A stretch of DNA of 59,394 nt from Sphingomonadales bacterium Ga0077559 (GTDB taxonomy: Bacteria; Pseudomonadota; Alphaproteobacteria; Sphingomonadales; Sphingomonadaceae): contig LNFK01000061.1 in NCBI GenBank assembly GCA_001464315.1, positions 1 to 59,394 of the forward strand, read 5' to 3'. The translations under genes were made by a program, and so were the position numbers. The notes beneath the pieces were generated by a model. The model did no database searches and was not told the origin of the DNA. It saw only the letters and a program-made list of their open reading frames with translations. Shown one piece after another: positions 39,389-41,720 of this stretch (the stretch's first letter is position 1; each line of letters starts with the position of its first letter).

Positions 39389-40489
39389 ATGGGTTTCAAA
39401 TGCGGTATTGTCGGGCTTCCCAATGTCGGAAAGTCTACCTTGTTCAACGCGCTGACGCAGACCGCGGCGGCGCAGGCTGCTAACTATCCATTCTGCACGA
39501 TTGAGCCGAATATCGGCAATGTCGCGGTGCCCGATCCGCGGTTGCAGACCATCGCCAAGATCGGCGGAAGCCAGAAGATTATCGAAACCCAGTTGGGATT
39601 CGTCGATATCGCTGGCCTTGTGCGCGGCGCGTCGAAGGGAGAAGGTCTTGGCAACCAGTTCCTCGGCAATATTCGTGAAGTTGATGCCATCGTCCATGTG
39701 CTTCGCTGCTTCGAGGATGATGACATCCAGCATGTCGACAACAAGATCGACCCGATTTCGGATGCCGAAACGGTCGAGACCGAGTTGATGCTTTCGGACC
39801 TGGAAAGCCTAGAAAAGCGTGTTCCAAACTTGATTAAAAAGGGCACGCAGGGCGACAAGGAAGCCAAGGCCAGTGGCGTCGTTTTAAGCCGTGCGCTCGA
39901 TTTGCTGCGCGAAGGCAAGCCTGCGCGGTTGACCAAACGCGACGATGCCGACGAAGAACGCTTGTTCCAGCAGGCGCAATTGCTGACGGCAAAGCCCGTG
40001 CTGTATGTGTGCAATGTCGAGGAAGCCAGCGCGGCCAATGGCAACGCGCTGTCGGCCAAGGTTTTTGAAAAAGCGAAAGCCGAGGGGGCCGAGGCCGTGG
40101 TTGTGTCTGCGGCTATTGAGGCAGAAATTTCTACGATGCCACCCGAAGATCGCGAAGTTTTCCTCGAGGACTTGGGCCTCACCGAAACCGGCCTAGCTCG
40201 CGTCATTCGTGCTGGGTACGAATTGCTCCACCTCATTACCTTCTTCACCGTCGGCCCCAAAGAGGCGCGTGCGTGGACGGTCCACACAGGCGACACCGCG
40301 CCTAATGCGGCAGGTGCAATCCACAGCGACTTCGAAAAGGGCTTCATCCGCGCCGAGACAATGGCGTACGAGGATTATGTCCAATATAATGGCGAAGCCG
40401 GTGCCAAAGAGGCTGGCAAATGGCGATCGGAAGGTAAGGATTATCTCGTCAAGGACGGCGACATAATGCTGTTCCGGTTTAATGTCTAA
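39389..40489 (+). CDS. ychF: Redox-regulated ATPase YchF (Obg-like)
   Basis: 366 aa. G1 GLPNVGKSTLFNALT, G3 FVDIAGLVRGASKGEGLGNQ and the Obg-like NxxE replacement of G4 (CNVEEASAANGN) match YchF/OLA1. The C-terminal TGS domain (TFFTVGPKEARAWTVHTGDT and DYVQYNGEAGAKEAGKWRSE) is intact. It is an ATPase acting at the ribosome and in stress response. Convergent with merR, stops overlapping by 4 bp. Confidence 0.97.
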   Translation: MGFKCGIVGLPNVGKSTLFNALTQTAAAQAANYPFCTIEPNIGNVAVPDPRLQTIAKIGGSQKIIETQLGFVDIAGLVRGASKGEGLGNQFLGNIREVDAIVHVLRCFEDDDIQHVDNKIDPISDAETVETELMLSDLESLEKRVPNLIKKGTQGDKEAKASGVVLSRALDLLREGKPARLTKRDDADEERLFQQAQLLTAKPVLYVCNVEEASAANGNALSAKVFEKAKAEGAEAVVVSAAIEAEISTMPPEDREVFLEDLGLTETGLARVIRAGYELLHLITFFTVGPKEARAWTVHTGDTAPNAAGAIHSDFEKGFIRAETMAYEDYVQYNGEAGAKEAGKWRSEGKDYLVKDGDIMLFRFNV

Positions 40490-40899
40490 CGTACCAGCGG
40501 CTCATCAAACGCGGCAATAATAGGACACGGCCCCACGTCGCTGGTGGCACATTCGGTCGCGAGATTTTCCAGAACGGCTCGGGCCTGGGCCAGTTCGGCG
40601 ATCTTTACATCAAGTTCGGCTATTCGCTGAAACGCAAGCTCACGCACGCTTCGCCGGTCGCTGCTGGCGTCCAGCCGCAAGAGCTCGGCAATCTCGTTGA
40701 GCTTGAAACCTGCTTTCTGTGCGGAGCGGATGAAACGAAGTCGCTTGAGGTCGGTTTCGTCATAATAATGAATGCCCTTACGAAGACCGGACTGGCGACC
40801 CGGCGGCTTGGGCATCAGGTTCGACCGCTGATAAAAGCGCACGGTTTCAACGCCCGTTCCAGCCGCAATGGCAAGTTTGGAAATTGTATATGCAGTCAT
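40486..40899 (-). CDS. MerR family regulator with two of three mercury-type cysteines
   Basis: 137 aa. MerR winged-helix start MTAYTISKLAIAAGTGVETV followed by RFYQRSNLMP, coiled coil, then a C-terminal effector loop with C117 and C125 (LATECATSDVGPCPIIAAF). The family's mercury sensors use C82, C117 and C126; here position 82 is arginine in ASSDRRSV and no other cysteine exists. The effector is therefore probably not mercury, or binding is altered. The divergent neighbour is a glutaredoxin-membrane fusion, and the intergenic promoter is mer-like, so the protein very likely controls it. Confidence 0.88.
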   Translation of the reverse strand: MTAYTISKLAIAAGTGVETVRFYQRSNLMPKPPGRQSGLRKGIHYYDETDLKRLRFIRSAQKAGFKLNEIAELLRLDASSDRRSVRELAFQRIAELDVKIAELAQARAVLENLATECATSDVGPCPIIAAFDEPLVR

Positions 40900-40901
40900 G
40901 C

Positions 40902-40932
40902 TTGACTCCGTACCATAGTACGGATGCTACCT
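40902..40932 (+). promoter_or_regulatory. MerR-type promoter/operator with 19-bp spacer
   Basis: TTGACT (-35, 40902-40907), then the perfect dyad CCGTAC-CATA-GTACGG (40908-40923), ATG, and CTACCT as a poor -10 (40927-40932). The -35/-10 spacing is 19 bp, the over-long spacing MerR activators correct by twisting DNA. The -35 hexamer and dyad arms match the mer operator of Tn501/Tn21 as I know it. Confidence 0.85.
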
Positions 40933-40958
40933 GAAGCGCATATATCGCAAAGAAAGTT

Positions 40959-41720
40959 ATGAAAATGGCCCAAATCGATTCGAAAATCGCCGACATTCAC
41001 CGCATGGTGATGCCAACACATATCTGCCCTTACGGCCTGAAAGCGCGGCATTTGCTCAAGCGCAAAGGCTATATGGTCAACGACCACTGGCTCGAAACCC
41101 GCGAGCAGACCGACGCGTTCAAGTCCAAACATGATGTCAAAACCACGCCGCAGATCTTCATCGGTGGCAAACGGATTGGCGGCTATGACGATCTGCGGCG
41201 CCATTTCGGCCTTAGGGTTCCAGTCGACGGCGAAACCAGTTACCGGCCGGTCATCGCGCTATTTGCGATGACTGCACTGATTGCCATGGCGGTAAGCTAC
41301 GCTGTCATGGCGACGCCCTTTACTGAGCATGCAGCAATGTGGTTCATTTCGCTCAGCATGTGTGTGTTGGCATTGCTCAAGTTGCAAGATATCGACAAGT
41401 TCGCGACGATGTTCCTGAATTACGACCTGCTAGCCAGACGCTGGGTCCCTTATGGATATATTTATCCGTTTGCCGAGGGACTGGCTGGCGTGCTGATGAC
41501 CGCAGCGATTTTGAACTGGGTTTCAATCCCGCTTGCTTTGTTCATCGGCGGTATCGGTGCGGTATCGGTTTTCAAGGCAGTCTATATCGACAAACGCGAA
41601 CTGAAATGCGCCTGCGTTGGTGGTGGCAGCAATGTCCCGCTGGGCTTTATTTCATTGGCGGAAAATCTGGGCATGATCGTCATGGCAATTTGGATGGTCC
41701 TTCAAGCCGGAGCGACGTGA
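40959..41720 (+). CDS. Glutaredoxin domain fused to a MauE/DoxX-like membrane domain
   Basis: 253 aa. Residues about 12-85 are a glutaredoxin-type thioredoxin fold: HICPYGLKARHLLKRKGYMV (single active-site cysteine C23 in CPYG), KTTPQIFIGGKRIGGYDDLR. Residues about 97-250 form four membrane helices with ALLKLQDIDKFATMFLNYDL, PYGYIYPFAEGLAGVLMT and, near the end, LKCACVGGGSNVPLGFISLA with C217 and C219. This resembles MauE/DoxX redox-associated membrane proteins. The likely role is passing thiol electrons across the membrane or handling a soft metal or thiol compound. It is expressed from the mer-like promoter controlled by the divergent MerR. Confidence 0.85.
   Translation: MKMAQIDSKIADIHRMVMPTHICPYGLKARHLLKRKGYMVNDHWLETREQTDAFKSKHDVKTTPQIFIGGKRIGGYDDLRRHFGLRVPVDGETSYRPVIALFAMTALIAMAVSYAVMATPFTEHAAMWFISLSMCVLALLKLQDIDKFATMFLNYDLLARRWVPYGYIYPFAEGLAGVLMTAAILNWVSIPLALFIGGIGAVSVFKAVYIDKRELKCACVGGGSNVPLGFISLAENLGMIVMAIWMVLQAGAT

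What the first reader, a model, noticed from the sequence alone, without database searches (positions are those of the whole stretch)
40486..41720. Mer-like operator controlling a glutaredoxin-MauE fusion through a MerR that lacks one mercury cysteine
Sequence shows: divergent genes, a promoter with a 19-bp spacer and the dyad CCGTAC-CATA-GTACGG like the Tn501/Tn21 mer operator, and a MerR with C117 and C125 but no C82 equivalent. No merT, merP or merA lies nearby; the target is a single fusion of a CPYG glutaredoxin and a four-helix membrane domain with a CAC motif. Family knowledge: MerR activates by twisting over-spaced promoters. Inference: a membrane thiol-redox or soft-metal response unit that reuses the mercury regulatory logic for another signal.
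Basis: partly seen in the sequence, partly recalled or inferred. Interest (0 to 1): 0.7.

Follow-up and report, generated by a model that had tools for sequence, protein, structure and literature searches.

The report
Mercury-style switch wired to copper-type genes
This is a two-gene unit, found in many bacterial genomes, in which a relative of the mercury sensor, sitting on a mercury-type DNA switch but lacking one of the mercury-binding residues, appears to turn on a membrane redox protein and, in relatives, a tiny metal-binding peptide and copper-type genes instead of mercury genes.

Summary
A mer-type operator lies between a divergent MerR and a Grx-MauE fusion, and it is the only exact dyad in the genome. 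Two details change: conservation favours a 20-bp spacer, and the model has five membrane helices.

The unit is conserved. In 297 genomes of the order, 95 MerR genes of this clade occur; 82 have the operator within 60 bp. All 86 distinct divergent MerRs of the clade that I aligned carry C117, C125 and Arg82; two Tn501-type MerRs before merT have Cys82. No fusion site has merT/P/A in the flank held (0 of 82). The clade is sister to Tn501 MerR, not CueR.

The operator also drives an unannotated 25-35-residue peptide ending CxCxxCTCxxCxC (13 genes), Met/His-rich proteins and, in one genome, a copper ATPase followed by a multicopper oxidase. Elsewhere the fusion sits beside CsoR-type repressors, DUF411 or CopD. 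Its S. meliloti ortholog is SmGrx3 (SMa0280), published as of unknown function.

Best reading: a mer-lineage sensor retuned to a soft, probably monovalent metal (Cu(I)/Ag(I)). The ligand is untested and Hg(II) is not excluded.

The parts
40486..40899 (-). merR-like regulator, 137 aa; R82 codon 40654-40656, C117 codon 40549-40551, C125 codon 40525-40527
   Evidence: ORF; Pfam MerR_1 and MerR-DNA-bind over cut-off; C117/C125/R82 alignment
40902..40907 (+). -35 hexamer TTGACT
   Evidence: sequence; conserved in relatives
40908..40923 (+). mer-type operator dyad CCGTAC-CATA-GTACGG
   Evidence: exact, unique in the genome; conserved across 82 fusion loci
40928..40933 (+). probable -10 element TACCTG, 20-bp spacer (19-bp reading would be CTACCT 40927-40932)
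   Evidence: A invariant 82/82 and T 70/82 at the matching positions; position in window
40959..41720 (+). Grx-MauE fusion, 253 aa; the next in-frame ATG is at 40965
   Evidence: ORF; Pfam; 82 full-length rows aligned
40980..41207 (+). glutaredoxin domain (residues 8-83); H21, C23-P-Y-G26, cis-Pro T63-P64
   Evidence: AlphaFold model and PDB matches to glutaredoxins; H21, C23, P24, G26, T63, P64 invariant in 82 rows
41244..41714 (+). membrane domain, five predicted helices (96-117, 123-143, 163-182, 186-210, 229-252)
   Evidence: AlphaFold model, mean pLDDT 87; Pfam MauE 125-248
41607..41615 (+). C217-A218-C219 motif in the loop between helices 4 and 5, predicted cytoplasmic side (inference)
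   Evidence: invariant in 82 of 82 full-length rows; local pLDDT low, 58-68

Best explanation
The locus is a self-contained soft-metal stress unit built on mer regulatory wiring. A MerR-lineage dimer sits on a mer-type dyad inside an over-long promoter and, when loaded with metal at C117/C125, untwists it so that the Grx-MauE gene is transcribed. In this clade the third mercury ligand (C82) is replaced by an invariant Arg and the Cys loop has the CueR length (C-x7-C). The most likely inducer is therefore a two-coordinate soft metal, Cu(I)/Ag(I)/Au(I) before Hg(II). The product is a membrane-anchored monothiol-type glutaredoxin whose C23 and the C217/C219 pair probably lie on the same, cytoplasmic side. 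I propose that it passes thiol/GSH chemistry or GSH-bound metal between the cytosolic glutathione pool and the membrane domain, so protecting thiols or moving metal out. In relatives the same operator adds a mini-metallothionein, Met/His-rich proteins or Cu efflux/oxidase genes. Shown: anatomy, conservation, regulon composition, phylogeny. Inferred: untwisting activation, ligand identity, topology and biochemical role of the fusion.
For: Operator exact and unique in the genome. 95 clade MerRs in 83 of 297 genomes, 82 of 95 with the operator within 60 bp, outward-facing; eight of the other 13 keep a dyad with 1-2 mismatches before the fusion or the peptide, two of them compensated palindromes. 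R82, C117 and C125 in 86 of 86 distinct divergent clade MerRs, C-x7-C in 85; two Tn501-type MerRs have C82 and C-x8-C. Clade 98/92, sister to Tn501 MerR 90/86, apart from CueR/ZntR. No merT/P/A match in the flanks of 82 fusion sites. Mini-MT: 10 of the 11 genomes hit with one peptide as query (itself from an operator locus; the 11th is a weak 35% match) carry the dyad upstream, two of them not found by the operator scan; 13 genes in all have the dyad start 56-76 bp before the ATG. Copper links: orphan operator with its -35 88 bp before a Cu P-type ATPase over TIGR01511 cut-off, followed by multicopper oxidase and CopB, preceded by a CusA/CzcA-family pump; Met/His-rich proteins (MPGM, DHSMHGM repeats) under the operator; fusion adjacent to CsoR-type repressors with C-x24-H-x3-C, DUF411, DUF305 or CopD in non-operator loci and beside cueR, copper oxidase and cupredoxin in Paracoccus. 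H21, C23, C217 and C219 invariant in 82 rows. Own genome: no CueR or MerA over cut-off, no CsoR family match.
Against: Nothing was measured. In the window's own genome no copper gene lies beside the unit; two Cu-ATPase genes there have no exact dyad, so the copper case rests on relatives. Known monovalent sensors carry Ser at this position, not Arg (PMC11591864, passages). Several units I opened are bare two-gene cassettes without copper genes. SmGrx3 is listed as heat-shock induced and its mutant showed no phenotype (PMC6315971, passages). CsoR-family repressors can sense non-metals (recalled), and the pump beside the G030 operator is of a family that also includes Czc-type exporters. One clade MerR (G601) has lost the -35 and has no fusion. 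Loss of C82 also occurs in other MerR lineages (L057, L058, L063, L075), so it does not by itself mark a copper sensor.
Confidence: 0.6

Rival explanations
1. A reduced mercury or organomercury response: the MerR still senses Hg(II), held linearly by C117/C125, and the Grx-MauE protein protects thiols or carries Hg(II), replacing merT/P/A.
For: Closest relatives are mercury MerRs and the operator is that of mer operons. The window MerR lacks the C-terminal CCHH that is proposed to stop CueR answering Hg(II) (PMC6899792, abstract and passages; window MerR ends ...FDEPLVR).
Against: The third Hg ligand is invariantly Arg (86 of 86). No merT/P/A match beside 82 fusion sites and no MerA over cut-off in the own genome. 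The operator regulon includes Cu ATPase and multicopper oxidase genes in G030.
Confidence: 0.2
2. A thiol-redox or electrophile sensor: the two cysteines respond to oxidants, disulfide or glutathione stress and the fusion is a membrane deglutathionylating system.
For: The output is a glutaredoxin fold. Recombinant SmGrx3 has low deglutathionylation activity and its gene is listed under heat shock (PMC6315971, passages).
Against: Co-regulated outputs are metallothionein-like peptides and copper-type proteins, which do not fit a pure oxidant response.
Confidence: 0.12
3. A divalent thiophilic metal such as Cd, Zn or Pb is the signal, and the peptide is a Cd/Zn metallothionein.
For: CxC-type peptides can bind Zn or Cd (general knowledge); MerR-family selectivity can be relaxed (PMC11591864, passages); a CusA/CzcA-family pump lies upstream of the G030 operator.
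Against: The third Cys used by ZntR/CadR-type sensors is absent; no ZntA-type gene was seen directly under the operator in the 16 sites read; most recognisable neighbour genes are copper types.
Confidence: 0.06
4. The pair is a chance neighbourhood and the dyad a relic.
For: Some fusion genes lie elsewhere without the operator, and one clade MerR (G601) has a damaged promoter and no fusion.
Against: 82 of 95 clade MerRs have the operator adjacent; compensated palindromes; spread over plasmids and orders.
Confidence: 0.02

Closest known systems
Tn501/Tn21 MerR-merT mer operon
   Same: Divergent MerR; -35 TTGACT; dyad CCGTAC-N4-GTACGG; over-long promoter; closest lineage
   Different: No merT/P/A; Arg for C82; Cys loop one residue shorter; probably 20-bp rather than 19-bp spacer (19 bp in Tn501 recalled)
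CueR-copA/cueO copper regulon
   Same: Two-Cys site with C-x7-C; Cu ATPase and multicopper oxidase among targets in one relative
   Different: Different lineage, Arg not Ser at position 77, no C-terminal CCHH, mer-type operator instead of the CueR box (CueR box recalled)
SmGrx3 (SMa0280) of Sinorhizobium meliloti
   Same: Same CPYG Grx plus MauE protein; its pSymA locus has the R82 MerR and a two-mismatch operator
   Different: Published as an atypical glutaredoxin of unknown function; no regulator or metal link is given in the passages I read
Bacterial metallothioneins (SmtA, MymT, PmtA; recalled)
   Same: Very small Cys-rich peptide with CxC motifs, metal-type regulator
   Different: 25-35 residues, C-terminal CxCxxCTCxxCxC-stop, no Pfam or NCBIfam match for the one tested, mer-type operator

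Membership tests
Mercury MerR (TIGR02051 equivalog) | Model score over curated cut-off | tested here: not met
   103.3 bits against cut-off 150.85
Mercury MerR (TIGR02051 equivalog) | Three Cys ligands C82, C117, C126 | tested here: not met
   R82 in place of C82; second loop Cys at 125
Mercury MerR (TIGR02051 equivalog) | mer operator dyad | tested here: met
   exact CCGTAC-N4-GTACGG after TTGACT, shared with the L066 (one mismatch) and L090 merR-merT loci
Mercury MerR (TIGR02051 equivalog) | controls merT/P/A | tested here: not met
   target is Grx-MauE; 0 of 82 fusion sites have a merT/P/A match in the flank held
Mercury MerR (TIGR02051 equivalog) | Hg(II)-induced activation | not testable with these tools
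   needs reporter assay
CueR (TIGR02044 equivalog) | Model score over curated cut-off | tested here: not met
   80.7 bits against 147.4
CueR (TIGR02044 equivalog) | C112/C120 with seven residues between | tested here: met
   C117-x7-C125; 85 of 86 clade members
CueR (TIGR02044 equivalog) | Ser at position 77 | tested here: not met
   Arg at the aligned position
CueR (TIGR02044 equivalog) | C-terminal CCHH | tested here: not met
   protein ends AAFDEPLVR
CueR (TIGR02044 equivalog) | Cu(I) binding | not testable with these tools
   needs purified protein
SmGrx3-type Grx-MauE protein | N-terminal Grx with CPYG plus MauE domain | tested here: met
   Pfam over cut-offs; same architecture read from pSymA
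SmGrx3-type Grx-MauE protein | Deglutathionylation activity | not testable with these tools
   reported low for SmGrx3 (PMC6315971, passages)
VKOR/DsbB-type four-helix oxidoreductases | fold match of the membrane domain | tested here: inconclusive
Metallothionein (peptides of relatives) | match to a curated family model | tested here: not met
   one 35-aa peptide (L119): 0 Pfam and 0 NCBIfam families at E 1

The most novel reading that the evidence does not exclude
Within the mercury-MerR lineage a distinct sensor class (R82, C-x7-C) answers a monovalent soft metal while keeping the mer operator. It runs a 'mer without mer' regulon of a membrane glutaredoxin (SmGrx3 type), an undescribed roughly 30-residue metallothionein and, in some genomes, copper-type Met-rich or efflux genes, using Arg rather than the Ser known so far at the position that sets mono- versus divalent selectivity. 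The direction of the change (from Hg to Cu or the reverse) is not settled by the unrooted tree.
Probability: 0.55. Interest if true: 0.75.

Novelty: new variant of a known kind. Interest (0 to 1): 0.62.

Why it matters
It gives a concrete, testable function for SmGrx3/SMa0280, described in print as unknown with a mutant that shows no phenotype: test that mutant under Cu, Ag, Au and Hg. It also offers a natural experiment in how MerR sensors choose a metal, since DNA recognition stays fixed while one ligand position and the loop length change. And it points to a family of roughly 30-residue metal-binding-type peptides, unmatched in Pfam and NCBIfam where tested, that came to notice here through the shared operator.

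Tried and rejected
Considered and rejected. (1) A plain degenerate mer operon: rejected because mer-gene matches are absent beside 82 of 82 fusion operator sites. (2) CueR membership: rejected on score, residue, tail and tree. (3) A chance dyad: rejected.

Rows dropped. In one search the G048 hit (35% identity, another family) was not counted as a mini-MT. In one search one of 83 fusion rows, under 225 aa, was left out, and the window is counted twice among the 82 (itself and L070). In one search sites identical over 60 bp each side were merged, while overlapping class-level loci remain listed more than once. In some searches identical MerR proteins were merged and matches under 90 residues left out (L126 has a shorter one). 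In one search loci with a dyad-like match of up to 3 mismatches were skipped, among them L039, whose match looks like chance. In one search the cut at 94 bits was mine. In one search a purine-rich stretch before the ATG was a condition of the script.
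Full report
What is there. The window carries two divergent genes 59 bases apart, merR 40486-40899 (-) and a 253-residue Grx-MauE fusion 40959-41720 (+). A ychF-like ORF overlaps the far end of merR by four bases and a peptidase-like ORF follows the fusion on the other strand (these two names are recalled from the translations). Between the pair lies TTGACT 40902-40907 followed at once by CCGTAC-CATA-GTACGG 40908-40923. The 22-base pattern with up to 3 mismatches is expected 0.04 times in shuffled windows and occurs here with no mismatch; its only other listing is the same dyad read on the other strand. 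In the whole genome (G000, 2.86 Mb, 99.8% complete) the exact dyad occurs once; three other places match with one mismatch and were not studied further.

The regulator. Pfam places it in MerR_1 and MerR-DNA-bind. Against NCBIfam its best model is the mercury MerR equivalog at 103.3 bits, under the cut-off of 150.85; CueR scores 80.7 against 147.4. The best solved relative is the mercuric regulator 5crl. C117 and C125 align with the loop cysteines. The C82 position is Arg82. The two cysteines are separated by seven residues as in CueR, against eight in the Tn501-type proteins.

Conservation. I searched TTGACN-CCGTAC-N4-GTACGG, at most one mismatch, in 297 genomes of the same order: 81 have it. 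The backward control pattern gave eight single hits by my count of the same table, against 99 listed sites. Over the class, 21 of 387 have it. I read DNA around these sites and classified 129 sites: 82 precede the fusion, 76 of them with a divergent adjacent MerR. By source, 77 of 93 order-level and 5 of 36 class-level sites precede the fusion; the class-level list repeats some loci. A separate search with the MerR protein over 297 genomes of the order gives 95 genes of at least 94 bits (48% identity or more) in 83 genomes; 82 of the 95 have the operator within 60 bp, pointing away. Of the other 13, eight keep the dyad with one or two mismatches before the fusion (six) or the peptide (two), including CCGGAC...GTCCGG and CTGTAC...GTACAG, which change both arms together; three have the operator 0.8-1.4 kb away; one is at a contig end; and one (G601) has a dyad with two changes in one arm, no -35 and no fusion.

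The residue switch. Among the distinct divergent MerRs at operator sites that I aligned, 86 have R82, C117 and C125, 85 of them with C-x7-C. The two others (L066, L090) have C82 and C-x8-C, and both stand before merT, which starts 67 bases from the -35 start. Fusion sites with merT, merP or merA matches in the 1.5-2.5 kb held: 0 of 82. All 22 listed sites with such matches (fewer distinct loci) lack the fusion. In a tree of 49 sequences the 26 rows of this kind, window included, form one clade (98/92) next to Tn501-type MerR (90/86), and CueR and ZntR fall elsewhere (92/84). The root is arbitrary and the long branches (ZntR, CueR, 4ua1) are unsure. Some co-directional MerRs of another lineage also lack C82 (L057, L058, L063, L075), so the loss of C82 alone proves no new metal.

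Promoter spacing. Across 82 fusion promoters position 28 from the -35 start is A in all and position 27 is T in 70. The commonest hexamer at 26-31 is CTATAT (37 of 82). In the window the -10 is TACCTG at 40928-40933. The transcription start has not been measured.

The regulon beyond the fusion. Thirteen operator sites in 13 genomes precede a small gene with a ribosome-binding-like stretch and ATG 56-76 bases after the dyad start, coding 25-35 residues and ending CxCxxCTCxxCxC-stop. A search with the L125 peptide found 11 of 297 genomes. Ten are convincing, and all ten have the dyad upstream; eight were already known from the operator scan and two (G642, G687) were not, and in G642 the dyad is intact but the -35 is not TTGAC. 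The eleventh, G048, is a weak hit in another family. The search missed three genes that the operator led to (G646, G595, G047). Pfam and NCBIfam have no match for the one peptide tested, and the protein database lists six clusters of 32-35 residues without Pfam domains. In L134 the peptide gene and the fusion follow one operator. In G120, G571, G642, G646, G687 and G047 peptide and fusion genes lie under separate copies in one genome.

Copper connections. In G030 an operator with no adjacent MerR has its -35 88 bases before a P-type ATPase over the TIGR01511 copper cut-off (583.5 against 397). The ATPase is followed by a multicopper oxidase over the TIGR01480 cut-off and a CopB start, and the operator is preceded by a CusA/CzcA-family pump. 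The only clade MerR listed for that genome is the R82 protein next to its other operator. Met/His-rich proteins without a Pfam family over cut-off (two tested) follow the operator or the first gene in L061, L079, L122, L125 and L144. Fusions without the operator were read in 20 loci (a 21st, L044, is truncated). Six have a CsoR-family gene immediately upstream, two of them confirmed by Pfam, with C-x24-H-x3-C read by eye. One has DUF411 and one CopD upstream. Four have DUF305 upstream (two scanned) and five near-identical loci have it downstream (one scanned). Three have nothing recognisable (the CsoR copper fingerprint is recalled). In a Paracoccus plasmid the fusion is in a run with cueR, copper oxidase and cupredoxin. 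On other plasmids the MerR-fusion pair is a bare cassette (Sphingomonas L045, S. meliloti L046, Shinella L048, Legionella lytica L049), and in L047 DUF305 and a heavy-metal ATPase are within 6 kb. Their operators match with 0 mismatches in L045, L047, L048 and L051 and two in L046 and L049; L050 has none. These are the loci I opened, not a random sample.

The link to SmGrx3. S. meliloti 1021 pSymA carries the same kind of protein and an R82-type MerR with TTGACTCTGTACCATGCTACGG between them (that record has no gene table). The review PMC6315971 (passages read) describes SmGrx3, SMa0280, as a CPYG glutaredoxin with a MauE domain, with low deglutathionylation activity, no mutant phenotype and unknown function; its table lists heat shock as inducing. 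That SMa0280 is the gene at this place is my match by architecture.

How it probably works. Shown: the regulator, operator, over-long promoter and target, their conservation, and a regulon of metal-type genes. Inferred from the MerR family: metal-loaded MerR underwinds the promoter. Inferred from residues: PMC11591864 (passages, citing Changela 2003) states that Ser marks monovalent and Cys divalent MerR sensors at this position; Arg is a third state. CueR's rejection of Hg(II) was proposed to need a C-terminal CCHH (PMC6899792, abstract and passages), which is absent here, so Hg(II) stays possible. My order of likelihood is Cu/Ag/Au, then Hg, then redox stress, then divalent metals.

In the own genome no CueR-family or MerA-family protein exceeds its cut-off and no CsoR-family protein is found (these models pass their cut-offs in 1, 1 and 6 of 14 control genomes), while two copper ATPases exist away from any exact dyad. 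The unit could therefore be the cell's only cytoplasmic sensor of these kinds; this is weak evidence, because other sensor types were not examined.

Novelty. The parts are known kinds (MerR switch, Grx-MauE protein). The combination, the invariant Arg82 class on a mer operator, and the small peptide family were not found in the papers searched.

Noticed in passing
L110, L115, L119, L123, L125, L127, L134, L143, L149, L153, L195, L198, L241 (operator-proximal): A family of 25-35-residue peptides ending CxCxxCTCxxCxC-stop under the mer-type operator; the one tested has no Pfam or NCBIfam match.
   Followed up: yes
L204 (S. meliloti 1021 pSymA 152500-164000): The SmGrx3-type gene (SMa0280 by architecture) has an R82-type MerR and a two-mismatch mer-type operator; the published function is unknown.
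   Followed up: yes
L125 from about +187 of the operator; L144 from +32; L061, L079, L122: Met/His-rich proteins of roughly 450-490 aa (MPGMxMP or DHSMHGM repeats), two of them tested without a Pfam family over cut-off, follow the operator in some genomes.
   Followed up: partly
L114 and L116, directly after an orphan operator: Small membrane protein of 155-179 aa with a His-rich N-terminus (GHSHG / GHAHQHG), weakly like DUF6010 below cut-off, under an operator without adjacent MerR.
   Followed up: partly
L122, about 60 bases after the -35 start: A small ORF that starts with a run of His codons (read by eye, not listed by the script) precedes the Met-rich gene.
   Followed up: no
G080:C1:3423232-3423561: A partial fusion copy (query residues 11-120) with an in-frame stop near an operator at 3423682: possibly a decaying second copy.
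   Followed up: no
L052, L053, L056, L057, L058, L063, L064, L065, L071, L077, L078: In other alphaproteobacterial families a MerR 37-42% identical to the window's lies co-directionally 50-62 bases after the same operator, several with mer-gene matches in the flanks; L057, L058 and L063 lack the C82 equivalent as well.
   Followed up: partly
L060, 0 to +1335 from the operator: An operator copy precedes an ORF that looks like an MFS transporter (by eye), a target of unknown meaning.
   Followed up: no
L239 (G601:C19 436500-441500): The one clade MerR in the order sample whose promoter has lost the -35 and that has no fusion beside it.
   Followed up: partly
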